Assembly (NCBI RefSeq): GCF_017916325.1
Contig: NC_090168.1
Location: forward strand, 1,135,143 to 1,199,142
Direction of reading: 5' to 3'
DNA length: 64,000 nt
DNA from: Leishmania martiniquensis
Taxonomy: Eukaryota > Euglenozoa > Kinetoplastea > Trypanosomatida > Trypanosomatidae
Position numbers and translations under genes: made by a program. The notes below the pieces were generated by a model. That model did no database searches. It was not told the origin of the DNA and worked only from the letters and a program-made list of their open reading frames with translations. How positions within the stretch are numbered: the first letter of the stretch is position 1; each line of letters starts with the position of its first letter. Positions 45,340 to 61,528 of the stretch are shown piece after piece.

Positions 45340-45568
45340 CTGCACGGCGGAGTTCAGTATCTATGGAAAGAGAGAGACCGAATATGTGAAGAGCCCATGG
45401 CTTCCTTTACGCCGCTCGTCTATCCACTTTGCTCTTTTTGTGAACGTTTTTCATGCCGCATGCATACGTATACATATGGCGTACACGTGCGTCATGGGAA
45501 TTCTGTTCACCGCAATCACCGAAGGTGGAAGCAATAGAGTTGCTCGTGTCTCCGTCGGCCATCCGCGT

Positions 45569-45588
45569 CACACACACACACACACACG
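45569..45588. repeat. (CA)n microsatellite
   Basis: About 20 bases of CA repeat just before the IDH acceptor tract. Confidence 0.85.
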
Positions 45589-45604
45589 CAGACGTACAGT
45601 CATA

Positions 45605-45669
45605 CACTCTTCGCTCGTCTTTTTCCTTCATTTTTTTCTCGGTTCTCTTCGTCCACTTGTTTCTGAAAG
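45605..45669 (+). promoter_or_regulatory. candidate spliced-leader acceptor for IDH
   Basis: A T-rich pyrimidine tract ends at GAAAG (AG at 45668-45669). From there to ATG 45866 the frame has no in-frame Met, so translation would begin at 45866. Confidence 0.45.
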
Positions 45670-45865
45670 AGTTACGAGACGCTTGGCGTTTTTTTTTTGT
45701 TGGAAGACTTCGGGCCGTCGCTCGCTCTCTCTCGCTTTACGCTCGTGGGAGTCGAGCGAGTGGGTCTTAGCCGTCCTCTGCTTGGCCGCGTATCCACGGC
45801 ATTTTCCTGGCCGCACGAATAGCAGTCTTGCTGACACTGCAAACGAAAAGAAAAAGTGTGCCACA

Positions 45866-47143
45866 ATGGGAGAGTCCATCACTTTCGAAAAGGGGATGCT
45901 CGTGACGCCAAGCCATCCGATTATTCCATACATTGAAGGAGACGGCATCGGCAAGGAGATCACGGAGGTGGCCCATCGTGTTTTCGACGCTGCGGTCACG
46001 AAGGAGTATGGCGCCTCGCGGCAGATCTCGTGGTTAGAGGTGCTCGCTGGGGAGAAGGCGTTCGAGCAGAAAGGCACCTGGCTGCCGGCGGAGACGATCG
46101 AGGCATTCGATAAATACCGCATCGGTATGAAGGGTCCCCTCGCTACTCCGGTCGGTGAGGGGATCCGCTCGCTTAACGTGGTGCTGCGCCGCCAGCTGGA
46201 TCTGTTCGTGTGCCAGCGTCCTGTTCGGTGGTTCACTGGCGTAGGTTCGCCTATCCGTCACCCAGAGTGGGTGGACATGGTTGTGTTCCGCGAAAATACA
46301 GAGGACATTTATTCAGGCATCGAGTGGGCCCAGGGCACCCCTGAGGCGGCGAAGTTTGCCGACTTCCTTCAGAAGGAGATGGGAGTGACAACGGTGCGTT
46401 TTCCAGAGACGAGCGCGTACGGTGTGAAGCCGGTTTCGCTTGAGGGAAGCGAGCGACTCGTACGTGCGGCCGTGCAGTACGCTATTGACCATCACCTTCC
46501 GTCCGTCACACTGGTGCACAAAGGTAACATCATGAAGTACACGGAAGGCGGCTTCAAGAAGTGGGGCTACAGCTTGGCGGAGCGTGAGTTCCCCGGGGCC
46601 GTCTTTACAATGATGCAGTACGATGCCATTCGGGCGAAAAGCGGCAAGGAGGCTGCCGAGGCGGCGCTGCGCGAGGCCACAGAGAGCGGCAAAGTTGTGG
46701 TAAAGGACTGCATCTGCGACGCCTTTCTGCAAAACACGATTCTACGGCCATTAGACTACAGCGTGATTGCGACATTGAACCTGAACGGCGACTACGTGTC
46801 GGACCAGCTGGCGGCGCTGGTCGGTGGCATTGGCATCGCCCCAGGAGCGAACATCAACTATGCGACGGGTCACGCCATTTTTGAGGCGACGCACGGAACC
46901 GCGCCGGACATTGCCGGGCAATGCAAAGCAAACCCCTCCTCGCTCATCTTGTCGGGGGCCATGATGTTTGACTACATGGGCTGGTCCGAGGTGTCGGCGC
47001 GCATCATCAACTCCCTTGAAATGGTCTTCCAAGCCAACATGGCAACAGGCGACCTCGCGCGGCAGATGACGGGTGCGAAGACGCTCTCGACCGCAGAATT
47101 TGGAGAGGAGCTCATCAAGAAGATCAAGGGCGATGGGGCGTAG
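45866..47143 (+). CDS. bacterial-type isocitrate dehydrogenase with NAD-type cofactor residues
   Basis: 425 residues from ATG 45866. The enzyme oxidatively decarboxylates isocitrate to 2-oxoglutarate. It aligns along its length with E. coli Icd (416 residues): HPIIPYIEGDGIG, GPLATPVGEGIRSLNV, FRENTEDIYSGIEW, LVHKGNIMKYTEGGF, NLNGDYVSDQLAALVGGIG and LFEATHGTAP-like FEATHGTAP. Isocitrate-binding residues are kept: Ser102, Asn104, Arg108, Arg118, Arg142, Tyr149 and Lys219. E. coli uses Lys344 and Tyr345 to bind the 2'-phosphate of NADP; here these are Asp348 and Ile349, and Tyr391 is Gly, a pattern of NAD-dependent bacterial IDHs. So NAD preference is predicted. No mitochondrial presequence or PTS1 is seen. 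It is unlike the typical eukaryotic NADP-IDH fold group, so bacterial origin is likely. Confidence 0.9.
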   Translation: MGESITFEKGMLVTPSHPIIPYIEGDGIGKEITEVAHRVFDAAVTKEYGASRQISWLEVLAGEKAFEQKGTWLPAETIEAFDKYRIGMKGPLATPVGEGIRSLNVVLRRQLDLFVCQRPVRWFTGVGSPIRHPEWVDMVVFRENTEDIYSGIEWAQGTPEAAKFADFLQKEMGVTTVRFPETSAYGVKPVSLEGSERLVRAAVQYAIDHHLPSVTLVHKGNIMKYTEGGFKKWGYSLAEREFPGAVFTMMQYDAIRAKSGKEAAEAALREATESGKVVVKDCICDAFLQNTILRPLDYSVIATLNLNGDYVSDQLAALVGGIGIAPGANINYATGHAIFEATHGTAPDIAGQCKANPSSLILSGAMMFDYMGWSEVSARIINSLEMVFQANMATGDLARQMTGAKTLSTAEFGEELIKKIKGDGA

Positions 47144-47769
47144 GCAGAAGCGGCGCTGCCGTGCTCGCCACTCGAGTGGCACGCGAAGGAGGAATACGCT
47201 ACCTTTTGGTTCAAGCCCAACCCCCCCTCCTAGCGATCCACTTCCCTCCCCCCTTCCCTTCACGCTGCACACCCTCGTGTGTCGCTGTTTCGCCTCTTGT
47301 TCTCCCGTTTCTCGCTGGGCCCCAATCTTCCCCCTCTCCATTGTCGGCCTTATAGCACCTTTAAATGAATCATCGAAGCCGTCTCCCGCCTCCTGTGTTT
47401 CGACACCGTGTTCGATCACGGCTGGTGTGCGCTGTGGGTCTTTGCTGCTGGGCTCTGCAGCGGGAAGCGACCTCTTACGCACCTAGCGCTTGTCTCCTGC
47501 ACAGATGCCCAGCGCGCTTTTCATACGGTAAGCGTGTGCACGTGGATATTGGATGGTGCGTCGCTCTTTCCCTCTGTTCCTCCGTTTTCCCCTTCCTTGG
47601 TCGACCGGCATCAAAAAGGAATGCAGCGAGGGAAGGGCCGCACACGCGTACTTCAGCGTGAGTACACTTGCTTGTTCACAGCTTTCCTCCACCTCTCTCC
47701 CCTAACGATTGTAGCCCCTTACGTGAAGCGGGGGGGCTAGAGGCGCACACTTCTCCGCGTGCGTGGCTT

Positions 47770-48240
47770 CTCAGGGGTCCCGCGATGTCAATCGGTGGGG
47801 GTGAGCCACGAAGCCCCCTCCCCATTCCTCCTCCCACATGCTGAACCACCTTTGGTGGTGTAGCACACAGGGTTGATTGCGTACCTCAGGGAGAGCTCAC
47901 ATCGATGCATGCCGGCGGATGCCGCCTGCGATGGTGAGAACCGTCGCACAATCAATAGGCAGCGCGAAGTGTCGGCTCGACTGAAGGATAACGCAGGTCG
48001 CTCTCGCTGTGCTTACTAGTGTGTGGCTTCTGCGCCGCCCGAGGGAGATGCACGAGGGGTAGCCACCGTTATCACACAAACGGCTACACGGCGACCTGTA
48101 GAGGGGTGGATTGGCTGTGCAGCCATAAAGGCAGTGGCCTAGCTCAGGTTGACCGAGTCTGTATCTCGATTGAACACACCGCCCAAACGACTGCTACGCA
48201 CAAGGTGGTGCATTTTGGGACCTTTGTGTAGGGCGGTGCG
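47770..48240 (+). mobile_element. candidate degenerate SIDER-like retroposon
   Basis: About 470 bases of GC-rich, non-coding sequence with a style I associate with Leishmania SIDER elements: CACCTTTGGTGGTGTAGCAC, GGGAGAGCTCACATCG, GCCGGCGGATGC and a CGGCTCGACTGAAGGAT segment. SIDERs are short degenerate retroposons found in 3' UTRs, where some lower mRNA stability. Here it would lie in the IDH 3' UTR. The identification is from memory of sequence style and needs a database comparison. Confidence 0.35.
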
Positions 48241-51200
48241 GACCTTGGCTTGGTCGTGTGTGCAGATTGCGTCCGTATTTGTGCGTGGTTGGGTGTGTGT
48301 GAATAGAGAGAAGGTATGACAGGAGAGTGGTAGAGTGGCGGTGATGTTCGATGACCGAATAAATGCGTTGATGTTTTTTTACAGGAAAGAAAAAGGTGCG
48401 AACGGAAACGCAAAGCCGTTTTCTAACGCCCTTTTTGTTGTTGACTGCGTATGGACGGGGTCTGCTGTACTGGCGGCTCCTTACACGTTTCTTTTGTGCC
48501 GCTCAAGTACCCCTCATGTTCTCTTGGGCGGACTCGTGCACGGCGTACGTAAAAGGTGCGTCGTCTGTGTACCCTCGCTGTGTGCATGCCTCCTCTTTCC
48601 CTCTGCGACGGCCTGCATCAGCGCTCGATTTTTTTTCCTGTGAGCTCGCCCAGCTTCACAGGGCAGAGCACGCACGCACATGTGCATCTGCACGTATTTC
48701 TTCGCCTCTACAACGCCCCTCCTGTGGAATGCGTTGGATCAGCGCGCGAAACGGGGTTGTATGAAACGCGTGCCCCCCACCCCCACCTCCACCCACTTCT
48801 CCGCGGTGTTTGAAGGGGACTTCAGACCTCCTTTCCTTGTTTGCTCTATCGTGGGCGCTGGCATCTCCATCCTGCCGTCGTCAGTGAGGGCGGGCCCATG
48901 TGAAGCTGATACGTAGATGATGGACGGAGAAGCTGCAGGTAGATTCGCGGGTGTGTGGAGAACAAGAAAGAGGTAGCGAGCCCGCGTGCGCGTCTCTGCC
49001 GCTGTTGCCGCGCACATTTGTGTTTGCGTGTGTGTGTGTCCGTCTTGGAATTGTATTGGCGCCGCTCATGGGCTAAAAATGTAAAAAAAGACTCTCTCCC
49101 AATTTCTTCATTTCCCCTTCTCTCTTTCTGCCTCTCTCTCTGTAGGCCCCTCATCGAGAGGGAGAGAAAGGGACGAGGACTGCAAAGGTGCCGAGACAGA
49201 GGCCGGGAGGGGTAAGATGGGCTACGATGCGCATAAAAAGGTCGGTTTCTCTTTCACAAAGCGCGCAGGCTTCGATGACTCGAGAGAAAAAAGGGTGCGC
49301 CTGCTTGTGGCTTCACAGGTGCACCTGAATCGGCTGAGGTACAGTCGCGGGCGCAGGGAGGAGAGGGGAGGAGTCACACATCGAAGATTCTTTAAGCTGC
49401 ACGCCACAACACAACAAAATTCTTCCCTTTGTTGTGACATTTGCGTACTGGTCATTTCCTCTCCCTTTCTATCGTAGCGTTAGCGAGCACAGGAACAGGC
49501 CGCCTCCCTCCCACCCTGGTAGACCCCACGACCTGTTATCTCGTTGACAGACGCTCCAACTCGCCATGGTACAAGCTCCCACACATTCCCGCCACCGCCC
49601 CTCTGCCCCTCCCTCACCGGCGCATGTTTGCAAATTTGCACCGCTGATAGCGTAGTAAGTTGCATCTTTTTCCTCGTTGCCCCCGTCTCCTCTTCTTTTC
49701 CGCATGCACGAGCCAAACCGTCCGCCTACACTGACCCGCATCCCCCTCTGCTCTCCCTCCATGACGGTGCCGCCGCCTTCCGCGCCACACTCTCCTCATT
49801 TGGTTTGCCTGGCGCCCTTCCAATCGCCACGACCACTTGTTGCCCTGTATTCAGGTTTGACGCACGCCTGCGCACCTACAGGAAGACACTCCCGCGCATG
49901 CACCTCCGCCACTTCTCTCTCATTGTCACCATCTGCGGCTGCTTGTCAGATGAACATGCAGAGATGTTTGAGGCGCGGGTGAGCGACCAGCGAGCATAAT
50001 CATGTGGAACGCGCTCACATTGAGCCGCAGCTGAGCTTTCTCGTCTGCAGATCTTGCGCGTCCGCGTATTCTGCACCCCCTTTTCGCCACCGAGCCTTTC
50101 CATCGACCGTCGCTGGCAAGCAAAGGTGTACATGAGGACAGCACTGATGCGTTGCACCGCGCATGCTCGACTGAAGAGCGATCTTTTTATCACACCCAGC
50201 CTCTACGCTTCTTTCCTGCGCATGTTGTGTGCTTGGAAGGCCTTGTCTGCTTTAAACTGCTGACAATGTCAGTTTGCTTGCGAACATGTGGGTGTGGGGG
50301 TCACAGCTTTGCAACGACTCTCATGGGAGAGCGCGCTCACAGTATGTCGATGATATGAGCCGCCCCAGCTCCTTTGTGTTGGGTACTGTTGAGGCTTGTA
50401 CGCTGTGCACGCTTTCTTGTGACCTATACCGACACGCGGTGCTGTTGCGCTGACGTTGTTTTCCAAGATGGCTGCGCGCTGCACATCCGCTTTCTCCACG
50501 TCAGTTGGATTTATGGCCCTTGAGCTGTGAAGGCAACGCAGATTCTTGGACTGGAGGCAATGCATTGCTTCTTTGAATACACGGATGGCGTCTGCGTACC
50601 TTTGCCGCTGCGCATCCCCTCATAGAGCGGTGTCTGCGGTACTCAGCTCTCTCGTCTCCGAGGACTCACCACCGAGCTCCTTCTCGGCGGCCGAGAGGGC
50701 GTTATGTGGCTCTTCCCTGCGCTTCTACGGTCATCTGTCGGTAGATACCGGTGAGAAACTGAAGCGCCGCTAATTTGTCGCGGACTATGTCGGCCCTGCC
50801 CACTGCATGTCTTCATGAGACCCCGCACAATGCGTATGCCTCTGCTTCCATTGCGTTTGCGTTGCAGGAAAGTGGCGGCGGCGGGGGGAGGCCCTCTTTC
50901 CACCCCCGCGCGGACAAGGATGGACATGACACGAGGAAGCAACAGGAGGGAGAGGGGCTGATGTGGTGTGCGAGCCACCTTTTAGCCAAAGAGTCTCAGT
51001 TACAGAAGAAAAAACAGCGAAATAACCGAAAGAGGAGAACGAAGAGAAAGGGGGTGGTGGTGATGATGGTGGTGGGGGTGAAGAGCAGTCCATTTCAGGC
51101 GCAGACGTCGAGGTGCTCTTTTTCTCGGAACAGGCGGACAGGGCAACGGAGTCTGCCCTTCCCCATCTCTCCCCCTGCCCCTGAACCGTATCCTTCTCTG

Positions 51201-52390
51201 CACAGCGGCCAAAGGCGAAAGAAGATGAATCGCAGTACAGAAGAGATGAGAAAGGCGCTGTCGTCGTCTTCTGGAAGGTCGATCTGCGCTCTCTGATGTT
51301 CTCGTCGCTCTTCTTCCATCGCGAATGCGGTGCCGCGGCCACGTTTTGTGACTGGTGTGCGTGAAATTGTCGGGGCGAGTAACCGATATGCTCACGGCGC
51401 AGTGCACGGCGGCTCTTGCTCGACCTGATGTGAGGTGATGCTGCGAGGCTGAGCTTCTGCTGCTCTTTCAAGCGCAACATATGTCCCCTCTCCACTTCGC
51501 ATATTATCCTCGTGGGCGCCTCCCCCCAACGCTTTCATTGCCTCTCTCCTCCTCCTTCAATTCTTCCGCGCCGCGCGCACACCACTCGCGCCTCCTCCGC
51601 CCCTCCCCTCTCCCCTTCCTCCATGGGATTACATCTCCTGTGCCCTCGTAGCACGTCACCTCCCCTGCATATAGCCTGTAAGGCGGTAGAGAGCCATTCA
51701 TCGCACGGCACATCTCGTTCGATGCGCTTTGCGTCACCTCGCTCGCCTTCCTCTTGTGCTGTTTCCATTTCCTCTCGCTCTCGGCTGCCTCGCGGCGGCG
51801 AGTCAACTGCTCGCGCCTGTGTTGCGCTTCCCCCCTTCTTTGCGCCCCCCTCCGTCCGCCTCCTTCCTCCTCTCTCTTCACCAGGGTACAATCGGCTGCT
51901 CCCATTTGTTGTAGAGTGTGGTACTCCCTAGGCGGTAGGTGGCTTCAGCGTACCTCTACTGCCTTCGTCTGGTGAGAAAAGGGTGTCTGAGCATCAAAGG
52001 GCCTCTTGCTGCTGCTTCTCGTGTCGGCGATCCGGCTTTGGTAAGCAGAGTTGGTGTGGCGCAAGCCGCTGAAGCTCCCTTTCCCTCACCGACCGTGTGT
52101 TGCCCCCCTCCCCCCTCATCCCCCACAAGACTTATCGGGGGGGTGCTCGGCTCTCTTTGTGTTCTTCTTCATGCGCCGGCAAACGCTCATCTCCTTTTGC
52201 TGTTTTCCACGAGTCGCGCTTCTCAGCTGTACGCAAAGGCCTCCGTGGCGCATCGGTGACGCGTAGCGGCGTGCACGGGAGGCTGCTTCGTCGTTGGTAT
52301 TCCTTTCCCTTGTCTGTCGGCCGCTCACTGCTTGGCGCACCCGGCCTGAGAAACTTTTGTTTTTGTTTTACCTCCTCATTACACACCCAC

Positions 52391-52439
52391 CCACACACTT
52401 CCCTCTCTTTTTCTCTCCCCCTTCCTCCCCACCCCCAAG
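52391..52439 (+). promoter_or_regulatory. candidate spliced-leader acceptor for the kinesin-ROCO gene
   Basis: Very long C/T-rich tract (about 52399-52436) ending in CAAG at 52436-52439, 217 bases before ATG 52657. Confidence 0.5.
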
Positions 52440-52656
52440 GCGGTCACGAACTCGACACCGTCTCCACATCGTCTCTCTCCCCCGCCCTCTGCCACGTGAG
52501 GAGCCTCTGTCACACGCGCTCCTCCACTCAGTCGAACGCGACAGCCGCTTTTGACGTCGTCGTCTTCGCTGGTGCTCACGGGCCCCACCTTTCGCGTTCG
52601 TCATCCCCTCCTCCCCCTCGACTGCTCTCACGGTCGAAACAGACACGGCCAAGCCG

Positions 52657-55600
52657 ATGAACGACAGCGCAGTGAGTGCCTCTCACAAGGCAGCGTCGAG
52701 CCGAGCCGAGTCCGAGGCACAGTCGAGAGAGAATAGCGCCGAGCGAAACACAAACTACGAGGAGGGGCGCATCACGGTGAGTGTACGCTTACGGCCACTC
52801 AACTCACGCGAGCTGAAGCTGAGCGCCGGGAGCTGCATCGCCGCACTCGAAGAGTACAACACTCTATACATCCTCCCGCCAGGGGAGTCGGAGCGGGACG
52901 TGCACGCGCTTCTTGCCAATGACCCGCATCTGCGTGGTATCCGTCACCACCGCTTCACCTTTGACAATGTCTACGACGCGAACTCCACCCAGGAACAGGT
53001 GTATGAGCGGATCGGGAGGCCGGTTCTACAGTCCAGCTTCTGTGGCTACCACACATGTATTTTTGCCTATGGCCAGACAGGCAGCGGAAAGAGTTACTGC
53101 ATGATGGGCGCCGATGGCGGCTGCTCCATCGATGATGCACCGGGTATCGTACCGCGCTTGTGTCGCGAGCTCTTTCTGGAGATGGGGAAGAGAAAGCAAG
53201 CCGCCTTGGAGAAGGAAGAAGAGGTGGACTTCAGTGTCTACGTCAGCTACCTCGAAATCTATCGCGAGCGTGTCCGCTCCCTCTTGCACGAGGTGCACGA
53301 TGCCAAGGTTGTGGCGGGCGGGAGTGAGGGGTGCGGGCCCGCCTCGCCACGTCTTGTGAGCGGGTCTGTGCGTCGCTCCAGCTTGCTTCATGCGGCGGAC
53401 TCGGCCGACGCTGCGCTTCGGGTGCGCGAGCACCCGACTCTCGGCGTGTACGTTGAAGGCCTCGCTGAAATCGCTGTGACGAGTGAGGAGCAGGTGCTTC
53501 GACTCATGCTGCGAGGAAATCAGCGCCGGCACATGGCGTCGACGCGCATGAACGAAACGTCGAGCCGGTCACACGCCATCTTCACACTGCAGCTGCTGCA
53601 GAAGCGTACGCGCGCCGTCCCCTCTGGCAAAGGGAGTCCTGGTGCTGTGACCACAGGGGCATCCTCGTCGGCGGCAGCGACGATGACGACCCAGTTGGGT
53701 GCCAAGATCAACTTGGTAGACCTCGCGGGCAGCGAGCGCGCCAAGGCGACCGGGGCTGAGGGAGATACCCTCAAGGAAGGTGCGCAGATCAATAAGTCGC
53801 TCACGACACTCGGCATCGTCATCAATGCCCTCGCTGCTCAGTCCACACCGACCGCCAACAGCCCTTCAGGGGCGTCGATGGTGCGGTCCGCTGCTGCGCC
53901 GAAGAGGCACATTCCTTACCGCGACTCGACACTCACCTTTCTTCTGAAGGAGTCCCTCGGCGGCAACAGCAAAACCTTCATGATTGCCACTGTGAGCCCC
54001 AGCGGAGACAGCTACGACGAGTCATTGAGCACGCTGAGGTACGCAGATCGGGCCAAGGCAATCGTGACAAAGGCGTTCGTCAATGAAACGGCCGGTGACA
54101 AGAGAATACGAGAGCTGGAAGAGGAGGTGACGCGACTGCGGGAGCAAATTCGCTCGTTGCTCAGTGCAGAGGCGCAGCGCTCCTCTACTTCAACGACAAT
54201 GGCAATGGGGCCTGGCGAACCCGCCGTCAGCGAGTCGCCTCCCTTACCGTCAGTCATGAAAGGTAGCCACCTCTACGCCACTCACGAGAACTGGGCGGAC
54301 GAGGGCGAGTGTGAAAGCTGCGAGAGGAGCGGGGCGCACTCATCAGCAACGGATATGGACGCGACGCACATGCACGAAACCGACGAGGGGCTGCAAGCGC
54401 AGAGCGCGGGCTTAGAAAACTCTCTGGAGGGGAGTGAGGGGACGCCAGCGCCAAATTCACCGATAGTGAAGAGTCCTGTGGAGTCCCGCGCCGAATTCGT
54501 TGCAACGTTGGAGTCTGAGCTGCGCCGTGCGGAGGAGATGATTCGACAGATGTCGGAGTCGGAGGCAGAGCGCAAGGAGCATGTAGCGCAGCTTGTGAAG
54601 CGACACGAGGAGGAACAAGCGGCGATGCTGGCGACGGCGGCGGCAGCAACCAAGGGCACCTATAATAGTACCGCTGGGGTGAGGGGTGCGACGATACGTC
54701 TGTGCCGCGAGGAGCCGTATTTGTTGAACATGGACGGGGCGGGTGACTGGGTCGTTGCCCATCTTGTGCCTGGAGAGACACGTGTTGGGGTCTTTTTGTC
54801 ACACCTCAGCGCCGCGTCGGACGCAAAGGCGGCGGCATCCCCGACGGAGCGTGAAAGTGACGGTGAGGTCAGCAGTCAGGCAACGTCGTTCGACTCATCC
54901 CTCGTGCTCTCCTCGCACCTTGTGGGCTCCGACGGCGATGCTAATGCGGTGGTACATGATGACGACGCCGGCGCACGATACTTACGACTGCCGAAAGAGT
55001 TCAGCGATGGCGTAGGCGGGCCGCATTGCATCCTTGAACGCCTGGAGGCGGCGGGGACTGCCGTAACGGCTACCTCGACGACGGTTCTAAGGGCATGCAC
55101 GGGGTACGAGACGTTTGTCATGCGCCCCATGTGCCGAAGACCGTTCGTCGTCAGGGGCAGCGATTCACTCGTCCTGCAGAGCGGAGACGTGCTGGACATT
55201 GGCGACGATCACATTCACCTCAAGTACATGGACCCTGCGGCGCCCCCAGTGACGTCGCGCGGACTACAAACAGCTCGCATGGAAACCGAAATGTACGGCG
55301 GCGATGGCGACCAGAGTGCCGATGGGGCTAAGAGCGATCGCGGCACGGGCTCAGCGACTGGTTCGGGCGCGTCGTCTGCAAACACGCAGGAGCAGGCGCT
55401 GAAGTCGCTGCAACGGTTGACGCCCACCTTTGACAGGCGCTCGGATGGGGTGGGTGTGGACGCGAAAGCGCGGGCGCGAGGCGGTACGCCCGGCGACGGC
55501 GATGAGCGTGAAGACAGTCGCGCGGATGCGGCGTCGTCGTTCGAAGTCGACTCCTCTCAGTGGACCTACAATCAGGGCGATGAGCCCGTGAGCTTCTCCG

Positions 55601-58600
55601 CAGAGCAGGGGTACCCTGAAGAGGGCACTCATGAGCGACGAGGAGCTGGTGGTGTTGGTACGGGCGCTGCCTTGGCGGCACCGCAGTCGCTATCCAGACC
55701 GCTCATTCCCACTCTTGCCCTGGGCAAGGCGCTTCCAGGAAGCCGACTGTCAACGCCTCCCCTACAGCAGTACCATTCAGTGCTCGGAGACCCGCTCGAT
55801 ACGGTAAGCGCCGACGCTGCCGAAACGGAATCCTCTACGACCTTCTCGGACTCGGCTGGCCTCTCCGCTGCGAGCCCTCTACTGAAAGAGATTGCTAACG
55901 CACCTAGCCTTTCGCTTCCCATTGAACGCCTGCAGTCAGCGGCAGGTACGCCGATTGCACAGACGAGAGCATCGAGCAAGCGCGCTCCGCAAACGACGCA
56001 CCTGAACCCCGATACGGCGTTGCCCCTCTCCTATTTGCAGTCGATGCGCACGTACCCGTCGAAAAGCACCTACCGAAGCGAAACCGCGCCACGCTTTGTG
56101 GGCCGCTACAATTTTGTCTTTGTGGGGCCGTCTGGCAGCGGGAAGACGAGTCTTGTGCGGAACTTGCAGACGCGCGACACACCCTGGCTGCACTCTGCCT
56201 TTTCGGCGTTCATGAGCAACAGTCGCGTCCCCACTGGCGTCGATGCCGGCAGTAATTCATGGCCGTCAGGGGCGGTGCATCCGACGATTGGTATCCAAAC
56301 CACCACACTAATCGCCGCCGGCGCGACGCCGATGCGCCTCCATGTGCACGAGCTTGGCGGGATGCCTTACTTCAGCCCGCTGCTAGACCAACTTCCTGCT
56401 CATCGAGTAACGTATCTGTTGTGCTTTCCGCTGCACGGCGGACCGTCGTTCATGTCCCTGCGGGGGATTGTGGAGGATATTTTGTGCCGCACAGACAGTC
56501 ATACGGTGTCGCTGGTGCTGGTTGCCACACACGCCCACCACCGCAGCGCCGCGGATGGCAAAGACGGAAGCGGCGGCCTCTTCTCTCGCCGCCTTACAGC
56601 CGCGCAGCAGGCGATGCTGCAAGCTCAAATGGAAGAGTTAGAGCTGCAGGTGGTCAGCCTCATTCAGATGCTGCAGCCCTACCCACAGCTGCGACCTACA
56701 GTGGTGGGCCGCTTCGCTGTCGACAACGTGCATCGGCAGGTGTACTCCACCGGATATCGGGCGGTGGAGGGGTTTCCCGAGTGGCTGGAATGGCTCGGAG
56801 ACCTGGCGCGTGATCGGTGCCGGGCCGATACGGATTTTGCCAGTGGACTTGTGCCTGTGCGGTGCCTGGAGCTTGGCCGCCAGGTGGGTCTACTGCGGGA
56901 AAGAGGAAAGTGGTGCCTGTCTCTGCGCGATTTCAAGGCGCTGGCAACGGCAGTCAGCGCGCAGTACGACGCAGCCGAAGCCGCAGACCCCTCTCTTGCC
57001 AGGGACACCCTCCGCCATCACGTACAGCTGCTCGCAGACTGGGGTGTGCTGGCGCATCGCTTTCGGAGCACACCGCTACGGCAACATGTCATTCTCGATG
57101 TGCGGTGGCTCTGCCGTGCGCTGACAACGCTGGCGTGCTGCGCGCTGGTCGCCGAAGCGGAGTCTGATGGGCTAGACAGCGAGAATGATGCCCAGGCGGA
57201 GGCCACAGCCGGGAAGCAAAGGCCGGAAATCACGACTCGAAAAGAGCTAGTACTACGCATCTTGCTCACACCGGAGGCCGAGGGAGTCATCGACGTGGTG
57301 AAGGTTGCGGCGATGGACACGGCCCACCTGCTTCGCTACGGAGTCTTGACGCTGCCTGTTCTCGCGACTATGCTGGAGCCTCATTTTAGAGCATTCGACA
57401 GTGCAGGTGTCACCGGAAGCGGCAGCAGCGACACTGGCGTCGACGTCGGTAGAGGCAAGGCTGGCGTGCGGAAGGCAGACAGCATCGGCGTTGCTGGCTT
57501 TGACTCGCCTGCAACCAATGCGCGCTACACTGTGCCACTGGCTGGCATCATTGAACTCTTTGTGCTTTGCGACCTCCTCATAGTGGGGCACAAGCTCTTC
57601 TTTAGTCCATCCCCGGACGCGTCACCAACTGCTGCGGCGCCCGCACAAGGCGTGGAGGTGGAGGCAGGCGCTCTTCCCGTTTCTGCTGCACCGCAGCGGC
57701 AAAGAGGCCGTGTGCATGAAGGTGATGGGCACAACCCGGACGACATTGAACCGGAGGAGGAAAGCTTTGTTTTGTACCCGCTGAGCTGCCGCACCCCCGC
57801 ATCTGCCGGTGTCACGTGGCTTTTCCCGTGTTTCCTCTCCGGCCCCTTTTACATCTTCAAGCTCGACATGGTACCACGCAACTTTTTTCCGAAGCTCATG
57901 TGCCGCCTGGCCACGGTTTCGAGCAAGGTCTACCTCGGGCCAGTGCAACCACAGAGGTGGGGTAGACCGACGCAGCAGTGGGCAGCGGAGGCGACGCGTG
58001 GACGAGTCACTGCTGCAGGGTGCTCGTCGGCAGCGGCGGCGCGGGGCCCGTTCGACTCTTACTTTGCGGATTGCGTTGGAAAGTCGTTTGTGCTGCCTCG
58101 ATTCTCTACGTACTTGACTCGCACCTCTGCCGAAGGCTCACCGCGCCGGTGGGATGGGCTGTGGTTCGACACAGCGTGGCTACTCTACAAGGACCGGGAG
58201 GAGAGCGATGACTGCGAAGACGATAACTGCCGCGTGCTTGTGCGGCTAGTTCACCACAGCGTCTTCCTGTCCTTCCACTGCGACCAGGCGGCCTCGTCAT
58301 CGGGCATGAGCGGTAGCGGTGCTAGTCCTGGCGTGCAGGATTTTTACGAAGCTGTTCTCGAGGCTGTCCGGCACGTTGTAGAGGAGTTCCCCGGCAGCAA
58401 GTGCAGCGAGTCGATGCAGTGCTCTGTTGACCCTGTGACGCTACTTGAGATGGAGCTGAAGCACCCCGCCATTCAGTCCGACCAGGAGGCGTCCGCATTG
58501 AACCGCTACGTGCGGTACATGAGAATCAACGACAACCTGAACAGTCTCGAGCGTGTCCTCGCCAAGAATGGGACGGCGCTGCGAACCGCCCGGACCGCCC

Positions 58601-58881
58601 GGAGGTCTCACGCACCAGGCTCGCAAGATGTTGGGGATGAAAGTGCCTACGTGCCGCTGCTGCGGAATTTCAGTGCTACGCGCCCACTGGACATCGCCGA
58701 GTGCCTCCGGATTTGGAAGACGAAGCACCGCTTCTTCATCTCTGCTGAGACGGAGGCACAGCTGATGGATGCACTGCAAGAGCTTGATGCATGCTACCGT
58801 GTGTCACCCCCGCTCACTGCCAAAAGCTGTTTCGCGCTGGATCGACTCCTGGACGTGCTGGCGCGCATTGACACTGCTTGA
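52657..58881 (+). CDS. kinesin motor fused to FHA-like and Roc-COR (ROCO) GTPase modules
   Basis: 2074 residues. N-terminal kinesin motor: P-loop GQTGSGKS (139-146), switch I NETSSRSHA (299-307), switch II DLAGSE (355-360), end near 475. Residues 475-510 and about 612-665 read as coiled coil. Residues about 681-858 resemble the FHA region of kinesin-3 motors (PYLLNMDGAGD, GETRVG, then a long beta-like segment ending DDHIHLKYMD). About 860-1130 is low-complexity. Residues about 1148-1395 look like a Roc GTPase: P-loop GPSGSGKT (1157-1164), TIGIQTTT, HELGG (DxxG position, 1231-1235) and THAH (1291-1294). About 1396-1875 looks like COR: LDVRWL (1480-1485), FIFKLDM-like YIFKLDMVPRNFFPKLM (FFPKLM 1743-1748), and WDGLWF (1832-1837). 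No LRR or kinase domain is seen. Role inferred: microtubule motor controlled by a ROCO switch, perhaps flagellar. Confidence 0.88.
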   Translation: MNDSAVSASHKAASSRAESEAQSRENSAERNTNYEEGRITVSVRLRPLNSRELKLSAGSCIAALEEYNTLYILPPGESERDVHALLANDPHLRGIRHHRFTFDNVYDANSTQEQVYERIGRPVLQSSFCGYHTCIFAYGQTGSGKSYCMMGADGGCSIDDAPGIVPRLCRELFLEMGKRKQAALEKEEEVDFSVYVSYLEIYRERVRSLLHEVHDAKVVAGGSEGCGPASPRLVSGSVRRSSLLHAADSADAALRVREHPTLGVYVEGLAEIAVTSEEQVLRLMLRGNQRRHMASTRMNETSSRSHAIFTLQLLQKRTRAVPSGKGSPGAVTTGASSSAAATMTTQLGAKINLVDLAGSERAKATGAEGDTLKEGAQINKSLTTLGIVINALAAQSTPTANSPSGASMVRSAAAPKRHIPYRDSTLTFLLKESLGGNSKTFMIATVSPSGDSYDESLSTLRYADRAKAIVTKAFVNETAGDKRIRELEEEVTRLREQIRSLLSAEAQRSSTSTTMAMGPGEPAVSESPPLPSVMKGSHLYATHENWADEGECESCERSGAHSSATDMDATHMHETDEGLQAQSAGLENSLEGSEGTPAPNSPIVKSPVESRAEFVATLESELRRAEEMIRQMSESEAERKEHVAQLVKRHEEEQAAMLATAAAATKGTYNSTAGVRGATIRLCREEPYLLNMDGAGDWVVAHLVPGETRVGVFLSHLSAASDAKAAASPTERESDGEVSSQATSFDSSLVLSSHLVGSDGDANAVVHDDDAGARYLRLPKEFSDGVGGPHCILERLEAAGTAVTATSTTVLRACTGYETFVMRPMCRRPFVVRGSDSLVLQSGDVLDIGDDHIHLKYMDPAAPPVTSRGLQTARMETEMYGGDGDQSADGAKSDRGTGSATGSGASSANTQEQALKSLQRLTPTFDRRSDGVGVDAKARARGGTPGDGDEREDSRADAASSFEVDSSQWTYNQGDEPVSFSAEQGYPEEGTHERRGAGGVGTGAALAAPQSLSRPLIPTLALGKALPGSRLSTPPLQQYHSVLGDPLDTVSADAAETESSTTFSDSAGLSAASPLLKEIANAPSLSLPIERLQSAAGTPIAQTRASSKRAPQTTHLNPDTALPLSYLQSMRTYPSKSTYRSETAPRFVGRYNFVFVGPSGSGKTSLVRNLQTRDTPWLHSAFSAFMSNSRVPTGVDAGSNSWPSGAVHPTIGIQTTTLIAAGATPMRLHVHELGGMPYFSPLLDQLPAHRVTYLLCFPLHGGPSFMSLRGIVEDILCRTDSHTVSLVLVATHAHHRSAADGKDGSGGLFSRRLTAAQQAMLQAQMEELELQVVSLIQMLQPYPQLRPTVVGRFAVDNVHRQVYSTGYRAVEGFPEWLEWLGDLARDRCRADTDFASGLVPVRCLELGRQVGLLRERGKWCLSLRDFKALATAVSAQYDAAEAADPSLARDTLRHHVQLLADWGVLAHRFRSTPLRQHVILDVRWLCRALTTLACCALVAEAESDGLDSENDAQAEATAGKQRPEITTRKELVLRILLTPEAEGVIDVVKVAAMDTAHLLRYGVLTLPVLATMLEPHFRAFDSAGVTGSGSSDTGVDVGRGKAGVRKADSIGVAGFDSPATNARYTVPLAGIIELFVLCDLLIVGHKLFFSPSPDASPTAAAPAQGVEVEAGALPVSAAPQRQRGRVHEGDGHNPDDIEPEEESFVLYPLSCRTPASAGVTWLFPCFLSGPFYIFKLDMVPRNFFPKLMCRLATVSSKVYLGPVQPQRWGRPTQQWAAEATRGRVTAAGCSSAAAARGPFDSYFADCVGKSFVLPRFSTYLTRTSAEGSPRRWDGLWFDTAWLLYKDREESDDCEDDNCRVLVRLVHHSVFLSFHCDQAASSSGMSGSGASPGVQDFYEAVLEAVRHVVEEFPGSKCSESMQCSVDPVTLLEMELKHPAIQSDQEASALNRYVRYMRINDNLNSLERVLAKNGTALRTARTARRSHAPGSQDVGDESAYVPLLRNFSATRPLDIAECLRIWKTKHRFFISAETEAQLMDALQELDACYRVSPPLTAKSCFALDRLLDVLARIDTA

Positions 58882-59929: not shown

Positions 59930-61528
59930 ATGGTGGCTGGAGCGATGAACAGCACCAAGCGCGTCCGCTCCCAGTCAGCGTACGAAGAGGCGAATGTGTC
60001 CGCCTTCGTGGACAGCTGCGTGGATTTTACCAGCAATGTGACCTTCCACACGGTGGAGGAGGGCCGAGCGCTCGCAGCGAAGACGGGAAGGTTACAGACA
60101 GTGCTCGTCCTGGGCACGGAGGCGCAATTGCAGGAGACTGCTGCGAAAGCACTATGCCCGCACTACGACGCGGCGATGTGCGCTGTCGCCGCTACGGCAC
60201 CGGAGTCGCGCGCTCACGTGGCGAGGGTGACACCGACGCTGCGACTACTGATTGGCAAGGTGCCGTCTGTTGCGTCGCGTCACAACTGTCCGTCAAGGCC
60301 GGATAAGATGAGTGAGATCGTGAAGCAGGCGATGGCGGAATGTCCCGCGGCAGACGCCGAGGCTGGGCTGGACATCTACTTCCTGGGCCGCGGTTATGAG
60401 GCGAGCGTGGCGGTCGCGATAGCGCGGTCATGCAACCAGTCATTTACTGCGAAGCGCGGACGCGCGGAGCAGAACTACATGAACCCGGGACGCCCGGTTC
60501 GGGTGGTGCTGCCAGCTGGCAAGAAAGCTTCACTCGCTGTGGTGGCGCAGTGCGTGCAGCTATGCCAGCGACTGGTGAATGCGCCGACGAACTTGCTGGA
60601 TACGGTGACGTTCACAGAGATTGCGGTACGATGGGCGGCGAAGCTGAAGGCCGATGGCATCGCCGCGTCTGCCACGGTGATTGCGGGAGAGGATCTCCGC
60701 GAACTTGGGTATGGCGGTCTGTATGGTACAGGGAAGGCCGCTGAGTACCCGCCGCACCTCGTTACACTGTCGTACAAGCCGAAGGCGGGCATATCCCCCA
60801 AAGATCGAATCGCCTTTGTGGGCAAGGGCATTGTGTACGACACAGGCGGTCTTGCGATCAAATCCCGTGACGGTATGTGCTCCATGAAACATGACATGGG
60901 CGGCGCAGCCGCGGTGTTCTGCGGTCTGCTGTGCCTGGCAATGCTGCATGCGCCGATCGAGGTTTCAAGCATCCTGTGCCTCGCTGATAACGCTGTGGGC
61001 CCTCGCTCGCAGCGCAATGATGACATATTGCGCATGAAATCAGGCGTCACTGTAGAGATTAACAACACAGATGCCGAGGGCCGACTTGTGCTCGCGGATG
61101 GCGTCTACCACGCCTGCAAGGAGCTGAGCTACACGCCCAGCATCATTGTGGACATGGCGACGCTGACGGGCGCGCAAATGATTGCGACTGGGCAGCACCA
61201 CGCTGCTATTTACACCAACACAGACGCAGCTGAGAGCCGCTTTGTCGCCTCCGGCAAGGCGTGCGGCGACTTGTGCTTTCCGGTTGTTTACTGCCCTGAA
61301 TTCTTCAACTCCGAGTTCTCCAGTGCCGTGGCTGATTACAAGAACAGCGTGAAGAATCGAAGCAACGCGCAGGTGAGCTGTGCCGGGCAGTTTATTGGCA
61401 ACCACCTGGCGAGGGACTATGAGGGCGAGTGGGTACACGTTGATTTGGCCGGGCCGGCGGCCCGCGATGAGGCCACGGGCTTTGGTGTTGCTTTGCTTGC
61501 ACAGACGTTTGCCGGGGAACTGCTGTAG
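59930..61528 (+). CDS. M17 leucyl aminopeptidase
   Basis: 532 residues from ATG 59930; a second Met at residue 6 (59945) is an alternative. M17 enzymes are hexameric two-metal aminopeptidases that remove N-terminal Leu and similar residues from peptides. The catalytic residues match bovine LAP with a constant offset of 49: metal ligands Lys299, Asp304, Asp322, Asp381 and Glu383, and catalytic Lys311 and Arg385. The signature NTDAEGRL is at 379-386. The first 170 residues form the variable regulatory domain. The C-terminal part contains DMATLTGAQ and a metal-free final strand. It is complete, with no signal peptide or presequence, consistent with a cytosolic enzyme. It likely contributes to peptide turnover downstream of proteasome and lysosome. 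Confidence 0.95.
   Translation: MVAGAMNSTKRVRSQSAYEEANVSAFVDSCVDFTSNVTFHTVEEGRALAAKTGRLQTVLVLGTEAQLQETAAKALCPHYDAAMCAVAATAPESRAHVARVTPTLRLLIGKVPSVASRHNCPSRPDKMSEIVKQAMAECPAADAEAGLDIYFLGRGYEASVAVAIARSCNQSFTAKRGRAEQNYMNPGRPVRVVLPAGKKASLAVVAQCVQLCQRLVNAPTNLLDTVTFTEIAVRWAAKLKADGIAASATVIAGEDLRELGYGGLYGTGKAAEYPPHLVTLSYKPKAGISPKDRIAFVGKGIVYDTGGLAIKSRDGMCSMKHDMGGAAAVFCGLLCLAMLHAPIEVSSILCLADNAVGPRSQRNDDILRMKSGVTVEINNTDAEGRLVLADGVYHACKELSYTPSIIVDMATLTGAQMIATGQHHAAIYTNTDAAESRFVASGKACGDLCFPVVYCPEFFNSEFSSAVADYKNSVKNRSNAQVSCAGQFIGNHLARDYEGEWVHVDLAGPAARDEATGFGVALLAQTFAGELL

What the first reader, a model, noticed from the sequence alone, without database searches (positions are those of the whole stretch)
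52657..58881. Kinesin fused to a Roc-COR (LRRK2-type) GTPase module
One uninterrupted reading frame carries a complete kinesin motor (P-loop, SSRSHA-type switch I, DLAGSE), an FHA-like region, and then a second P-loop domain whose order and motifs look like Roc followed by COR (LDVRWL, FFPKLM, WDGLWF). ROCO proteins normally carry LRR, kinase or WD40 partners. A motor-ROCO fusion would place a GTPase switch directly on a microtubule motor, notable because LRRK2 binds microtubules and can block kinesin movement. I know of no described kinesin-ROCO protein, but I cannot search.
Basis: partly seen in the sequence, partly recalled or inferred. Interest (0 to 1): 0.92.

Follow-up and report, generated by a model that had tools for sequence, protein, structure and literature searches.

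The report
Kinesin-3 motor carrying a Roc-COR module
A Leishmania-type parasite gene encodes one long protein that joins a kinesin motor and its FHA domain to the Roc-COR core otherwise known from Roco proteins such as the Parkinson's protein LRRK2, an architecture shared by its relatives, although in this species the GTP-recognition site looks degraded.

Summary
Window 52657-58881 (+) is one 2074-aa frame with a kinesin motor (3.7e-100), a kinesin-3-type FHA domain (the 11 best Foldseek rows are kinesin FHA structures) and a C-terminal Roc-COR-A-COR-B tandem. On the window protein alone Pfam is not significant for Roc (0.19) or COR-A (0.15-0.22); its relatives settle it. Eighteen homologs were found; 17 carry motor and module, the 18th starts inside the motor. 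The five deepest match COR-A (best 4.5e-6) and, as cut-out pieces, COR-B (best 1.2e-4) in the right order. A 7-row profile ranks LRRK2 Roc first in the PDB (2e-8). Motor and module trees agree in their main splits. The module is single-copy here. Two departures weaken the 'GTPase switch' idea: G3 is ExxG in 19 of 19, and the G4 Asp is lost in 9 of 9 of the Leishmania/Novymonas/Porcisia clade. Best reading: a kinesin-3 whose tail is a Roc-COR dimerising/regulatory module, with altered or lost guanine dependence in this clade. Ten searches of open papers listed no description of it.

The parts
52657..58881 (+). whole gene: kinesin - coiled coil - FHA - linker - Roc - COR-A - COR-B - C-terminal tail, 2074 aa
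   Evidence: homologs with the same layout
52786..54063 (+). kinesin motor domain, residues 44-469
   Evidence: PF00225 3.7e-100; nearest solved relatives KIF13B and KIF1A
54100..54189 (+). neck helix, residues 482-511
   Evidence: predicted helix, pLDDT blocks 63-82
54478..54642 (+). long helix before FHA, residues 608-662, placed like kinesin-3 CC1
   Evidence: predicted helix; KIF1A CC1-FHA among the best Foldseek rows
54718..55230 (+). FHA domain, residues about 688-858, with a long low-confidence loop inside
55297..56091 (+). poorly conserved linker, residues 881-1145
   Evidence: mean identity 44% (Leishmania clade) and 39% (Leptomonas clade) over residues 880-1130, against 80% and 79% for the motor
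56092..56811 (+). Roc (Ras-like) domain, residues 1146-1385
56125..56148 (+). G1 P-loop GPSGSGKT, residues 1157-1164
   Evidence: GxxxxGK[ST] in 19 of 19
56350..56361 (+). G3 position: ELGG (ExxG) in place of DxxG, residues 1232-1235
   Evidence: ExxG in 19 of 19
56527..56538 (+). G4 position: THAH, residues 1291-1294; THAD in the Leptomonas group
56812..57216 (+). COR-A, residues about 1386-1520
   Evidence: weak Pfam match at 57010-57129 (0.22); 6 of 6 COR pieces match COR-A, this one included
57829..58461 (+). COR-B, residues about 1725-1935
   Evidence: alignment to relatives whose pieces match COR-B at 1.2e-4 to 0.033; no Pfam match on the window piece itself
58462..58878 (+). C-terminal tail, residues 1936-2074, conserved in the clade, no known domain
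   Evidence: 0 Pfam families at E up to 1 on a piece that holds it; 70% mean identity in the Leishmania clade

Best explanation
This is a single-copy kinesin-3-type (Unc104-like) motor of trypanosomatids whose C-terminal tail is a Roco-type Roc-COR tandem. Shown: the architecture, its presence in one protein in 17 of 18 homologs found, and homology of the tandem to Roc, COR-A and COR-B. Inferred: the N-terminal motor with coiled coil and FHA walks and dimerises as in KIF1A/KIF13; the Roc-COR module works as a second dimerisation and regulatory unit on the tail, COR-B pairing two chains and Roc setting the state of the pair through nucleotide or a bound partner, so that cargo binding or release of the folded motor is gated at the tail. 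In the lineages with a G4 Asp this may be a GTP/GDP-driven switch. In the Leishmania/Novymonas/Porcisia clade, including this species, the lost G4 Asp makes guanine specificity doubtful, so here the module more probably acts as a nucleotide-locked or partner-driven scaffold. Likelihoods: identity about 0.95; tail dimerisation/regulation about 0.5; GTP-driven gating in this species about 0.2.
For: Open frame and motor. Seventeen of 18 homologs carry motor plus module. Pfam COR-A 4.5e-6, 3.8e-5, 1.1e-4, 3.3e-4, 6.6e-4 in the five deepest relatives, 0.014 in P0014, 0.22 here. COR pieces: COR-A 6 of 6, best 1.6e-7, one other family listed (DUF6063, 0.19); COR-B 5 of 5 deep ones in tighter pieces. 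Profile vs PDB: the first 16 of 471 sequences (60 shown) are LRRK2 entries (15 so named) at 2.1e-8 to 4e-7, next Rab27 at 5.1e-5. Profile-profile with five bacterial Rocos: E 3e-7 over 507 columns; COR alone scores 35.8 (19 rows) and 32.5 (five deep rows) against maxima of 22.8 and 22.2 in 40 column shuffles each. Motor and module trees agree in their main splits. C-terminal half of COR as the dimerising part: PMC6337361, section read.
Against: No Pfam match of the window protein to Roc or COR is significant alone, and its C-terminal piece matches nothing. On one cut-out piece the only model over its cut-off is AAA_28 (27.3 bits against 27, E 4.8e-6), over the P-loop stretch alone, and Ras stays just under its own (20 against 21.6). 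Every COR-A, COR-B and Roc match of the relatives lies under Pfam's curated cut-off. COR-B is not listed for the longer pieces and passes 0.1 in 3 of the 5 deep full-length proteins. HH-suite gives the COR-only comparison a probability of just 12-36%, and the 507-column alignment runs past the COR end of the bacterial Roco, so its far part is doubtful. A COR-only profile found no Roco entry in PDB (4 weak matches, all NDUFB9). The structure model of the module is poor (mean pLDDT 37.9). ExxG in 19 of 19 and the lost G4 Asp argue against a normal GTPase. The homolog searches used the module as query and admit only proteins of 0.55-1.75 times the query's length, so short free-standing Roc-COR relatives could not appear. 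Nothing here tests dimerisation, motility, nucleotide binding or cargo.
Confidence: 0.6

Rival explanations
1. The Roc domain has become a pseudo-GTPase in the whole family: the module is a structural cargo adaptor or dimeriser with no nucleotide cycle, and the P-loop is a relic or binds nucleotide permanently.
For: G3 ExxG in 19 of 19; G4 Asp lost in 9 of 9 of one clade and the motif altered elsewhere (TFAD, TCTD); mean Roc identity is still 75% within that clade.
Against: GxxxxGK[ST] intact in 19 of 19 and the switch I Thr in 19 of 19; an Asp at the end of G4 is kept in P0010-P0018, 9 sequences.
Confidence: 0.4
2. The module is a generic Ras-like or other P-loop domain followed by an unrelated family-specific helical tail; the Roco likeness of the tail is convergent or weak.
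For: COR-only profile vs PDB finds no Roco; fold matches do not separate Roc from Rag, Arl or Rab; AAA_28 is the one model just over its cut-off on a window piece; low HH probability for COR alone.
Against: COR-A in 6 of 6 isolated COR pieces, best 1.6e-7, with one other family listed; COR-B in 5 of 5; COR-COR profile score above all 40 shuffles in both row sets tried; LRRK2 ahead of all Rab and Rap sequences.
Confidence: 0.04
3. Two neighbouring genes read as one frame, or an assembly error.
For: A low-conservation linker of about 265 residues lies between FHA and Roc.
Against: Continuous in 17 of 18 homologous predicted proteins from several species; coding bias across the linker; no long pyrimidine tract inside the frame.
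Confidence: 0.01

Closest known systems
Kinesin-3 (Unc104/KIF1A, KIF13B)
   Same: N-terminal motor closest in sequence to KIF13B and KIF1A, coiled coil then FHA as in CC1-FHA.
   Different: No PH domain found by Pfam; no lysine-rich loop where the K-loop would be (sequence; K-loop recalled); the tail is Roc-COR instead.
Roco proteins (LRRK2, LRRK1, DAPK1, MFHAS1, C. tepidum Roco)
   Same: Roc followed directly by COR-A and COR-B.
   Different: Review PMC6337361 sorts Rocos into LRR-RocCOR, LRR-RocCOR-kinase and DAPK groups (section read); here no LRR or kinase was found by Pfam, a kinesin motor instead. G3 is ExxG, while all five bacterial Rocos read here have DxxG.
IMLRK proteins of amoebae (inactive myotubularin/LRR/ROCO/kinase)
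   Same: Roco core joined to an unrelated enzyme family; Entamoeba members are described as having deletions in critical residues, with one that might be active (PMC2927912, passages).
   Different: Partner is a myotubularin with LRR and kinase, not a motor.

Membership tests
Kinesin superfamily | complete motor domain with P-loop, switch I, DLAGSE | tested here: met
Kinesin-3 | motor nearest to kinesin-3 | tested here: met
   best PDB sequences KIF13B and KIF1A; no tree of kinesin families was built
Kinesin-3 | FHA domain after the neck | tested here: met
   by fold; Pfam FHA only in P0019 among the seven full-length proteins scanned at E up to 10 or 0.1, 0.0037, under its cut-off (P0013 also without)
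Kinesin-3 | lysine-rich K-loop in loop 12 | tested here: not met
   no lysine cluster, judged by eye, in the sequence shown (definition recalled)
Kinesin-3 | C-terminal PH domain (Unc104/KIF1 branch) | tested here: inconclusive
   no Pfam match in the window protein at E up to 10; tail not modelled well
Roco | Roc domain | tested here: met
   profile vs PDB 2e-8; Pfam Roc 2.2e-4 in P0018; 0.19 in the window piece
Roco | COR directly after Roc | tested here: met
   mainly through relatives; not by structure
Roco | G3 DxxG | tested here: not met
   ExxG in 19 of 19
Roco | guanine-specifying G4 ending in Asp | tested here: not met
   THAH here; Asp lost in 9 of 9 of this clade; kept in P0010-P0018; P0019 reads THLED. 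The review says that G4-G5 vary in Roc domains
Roco | GTP binding and hydrolysis, COR dimerisation | not testable with these tools
   needs biochemistry

The most novel reading that the evidence does not exclude
Trypanosomatids hold a fourth kind of Roco protein, a motor-Roco, in which the Roc-COR dimer cycle directly gates a kinesin-3; in the Leishmania branch the module has been turned from a GTP switch into a nucleotide-independent or differently fed scaffold, a natural before-and-after pair for Roco mechanism.
Probability: 0.25. Interest if true: 0.88.

Novelty: new variant of a known kind. Interest (0 to 1): 0.72.

Why it matters
Roc-COR is the core of LRRK2, and the catalytic half of LRRK2 blocks kinesin on microtubules in vitro; changes in its ROC basic patch or COR-B interface abolish this (PMC9758056, passages). 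A protein in which Roc-COR and a kinesin evolved in one chain offers a direct test of whether the Roc-COR state controls a motor. The loss of the G4 Asp in one clade and its retention in the sister clade make the need for guanine nucleotide testable by comparing natural orthologs. In the sources listed the homologs are named as Unc104-like or motor-domain kinesins or as hypothetical proteins, and one partial protein as a SAR1-family GTPase; none of the names shown mentions Roc-COR.

Tried and rejected
Structure prediction of residues 1130-2074 used 13 rows (window and 12 near relatives), before the deep ones were found; the model is poor (37.9) and both jobs were then spent, so COR was never tested by fold. 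Foldseek and VIA on that model list small G domains of many kinds; LRRK2 is first in VIA but tied within 1 Z unit with Rag, Arl-like and LRRK1 rows, so this only supports a Ras-like fold. A COR-only profile against PDB found no Roco. COR-A (E up to 0.001) and COR-B (E up to 10) searches of the own genome found nothing, not even this gene. A scan of bacterial and archaeal genomes with the Roc-COR alignment gave 34 pattern matches and no relative. In 30 bacterial genomes searched for COR-A, 3 of 30 matched, at 6 places; L096 was dropped because it held no frame with a P-loop (frames of 282 and 313 aa), leaving five Rocos for the profile comparison. The 8-row COR set (score 39.5) was not shuffled. 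P0004 and P0011 were left out of the identity means, and P0011 out of the motor tree. That tree warns of long branches meeting (P0014 with the five deep rows); no rebuild without them was made. Literature: ten searches over open-licence PMC papers. Searches found 0 papers; some searches listed 30 of 225, 20 of 80, 20 of 138 and 20 of 33. No title or abstract start shown describes a kinesin-Roco. Passages were seen from PMC2867816, PMC9758056, PMC6337361, PMC8885694, PMC2927912 and PMC10164940, and sections from PMC2867816 (one) and PMC6337361 (two); PMC8246997 was not opened. Subscription papers and supplements, such as the full architecture list of PMC2867816, were not seen. The L. mexicana DEATH kinesin is a different, 610-aa protein.
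Full report
What is there. The + strand frame 52657-58881 encodes 2074 aa. It has a full kinesin motor (3.7e-100) whose nearest solved relatives are KIF13B and KIF1A. The genome is that of a Leishmania-type parasite: the nearest protein, 81% identical over residues 1130-2074, is from Leishmania sp. Ghana 2012 LV757.

One gene. Third-position GC is at least 0.59 in each of 21 blocks of 100 codons, and no pyrimidine tract of 12 or more bases lies inside the frame, against 10 in the 1.5 kb upstream and 2 in the 1.2 kb downstream. Of 18 homologs found in three searches, 17 carry motor and module in one predicted protein; P0011 starts inside the end of the motor. The searches used the module as query and admit only proteins of 0.55-1.75 times the query's length, so short free-standing modules could not have appeared; in the own genome, where no such limit holds, the module occurs once.

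Roc and COR. The window protein alone gives Roc 0.19 and Ras 5e-4 on a cut-out piece and COR-A 0.15-0.22: suggestive, not significant. On that piece AAA_28 is just over its cut-off (27.3 against 27 bits), over the P-loop stretch alone. The family decides. COR-A in full-length relatives: P0018 4.5e-6, P0017 3.8e-5, P0016 1.1e-4, P0019 3.3e-4, P0015 6.6e-4, P0014 0.014; all lie under Pfam's curated cut-off, though the protein database's own precomputed list gives COR-A to P0017 and P0018. In seven Roc-COR pieces COR-A matches 7 of 7, Roc 2 of 7 and Ras 3 of 7 at E up to 1. In COR pieces COR-A matches 6 of 6, best 1.6e-7, with one other family at 0.19. COR-B matches 5 of 5 deep relatives in pieces cut around it (1.2e-4, 5.6e-4, 0.0014, 0.01, 0.033) and not the window piece; it is not listed for the longer pieces, and in full-length proteins it passes 0.1 in 3 of 5. 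P0018 aligns to the window's Roc and COR-A stretch at 7.7e-45 and 39% identity, so the chain of homology is direct. A profile of seven Roc-COR pieces against the PDB ranks 16 LRRK2 entries first (15 so named) at 2.1e-8 to 4e-7, then Rab27 at 5.1e-5; LRRK1 follows at 0.002. Against five bacterial Rocos taken from 3 of 30 genomes, profile-profile E is 3e-7 over 507 columns, the far end doubtful. COR against COR scores 35.8 with 19 rows and 32.5 with the five deep rows, against maxima of 22.8 and 22.2 in 40 column shuffles each; the reversed profile gives 14.2 and 11.7; an 8-row set, not shuffled, scores 39.5; HH probabilities are 12-36%.

Results against. COR-only profile vs PDB: no Roco. The model of the module is poor, and its G-domain matches are shared among Roc, Rag, Arl and Rab folds.

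Evolution. Motor and module trees (18 and 19 rows) show the same main splits: five deep rows, then P0014, then the Leptomonas group and the Leishmania/Novymonas/Porcisia group; they differ in detail among P0003-P0005, and P0014 is a long branch. This fits one old fusion inherited vertically. No canonical Roco was found in this genome with COR-A at 0.001 or COR-B at 10, but those searches missed this gene too.

G motifs. P-loop GxxxxGK[ST] 19 of 19; switch I Thr 19 of 19; G3 is ExxG in 19 of 19, whereas the review calls the DxxG region, with the Roc-COR interface, the most conserved of Rocos (PMC6337361, section read). G4: THAD in 4 of 4 of the Leptomonas group, THRD in P0017 and P0018, THKD in P0015, TFAD in P0014, TCTD in P0016, THLED in P0019; THAH (8) or THAR (1) in 9 of 9 of the Leishmania/Novymonas/Porcisia clade. 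Yet mean Roc identity within that clade is 75% (motor 80, FHA 67, linkers 49 and 44; 8 of 9 rows used), close to the Leptomonas group's 78% (3 of 4 rows). In the five deep rows Roc is less conserved than FHA, 49 against 52. The domain seems kept under constraint after losing a specificity residue.

How it likely works. Shown: parts, order, conservation. Inferred: the FHA-bearing motor end works as in kinesin-3; [quoted passage not shown] Roc state sets tail pairing or partner binding and so gates the motor. In this species a GTP-driven cycle is doubtful; a nucleotide-locked or partner-driven scaffold is more likely.

Known or new. A survey of 1624 kinesins found 105 architectures, most in one organism (PMC2867816, one section and passages); its full list was not available here. 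The Roco review lists three groups, none with a motor (section read). Ten searches of open papers listed no kinesin-Roco (several lists were capped). I file it as a new variant of known kinds.

Noticed in passing
47144-52656: About 5.5 kb between isocitrate dehydrogenase (45476-47143) and the kinesin gene holds no ATG-started ORF over 231 aa and no tandem repeat (score 50 or more), and 47200-52600 has no second copy in the genome at E 1e-10.
   Followed up: partly
59930-61528 (+): Next gene downstream is an M17 cytosol-aminopeptidase-type peptidase (PF00883, 5.1e-91).
   Followed up: partly
G000:C32:1203504-1203887, C14:508955-509296, C36:747216-747527, C33:1279420-1279794: Other large open frames (837-1054 aa) of this genome carry Ras/Roc-like G domains marked over the Pfam Roc cut-off (the last one only with its neighbours in the frame); their remaining domains were not examined.
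   Followed up: no
P0008 (L. tarentolae ortholog): Its module P-loop reads GPSDSGKS, with Asp at a position that is Gly in most of the other 18 sequences; it still fits GxxxxGKS.
   Followed up: no
P0011: A 1690-aa homolog starting inside the motor is named 'GTPase SAR1 family protein' by its source, an independent naming as a G-domain protein.
   Followed up: no
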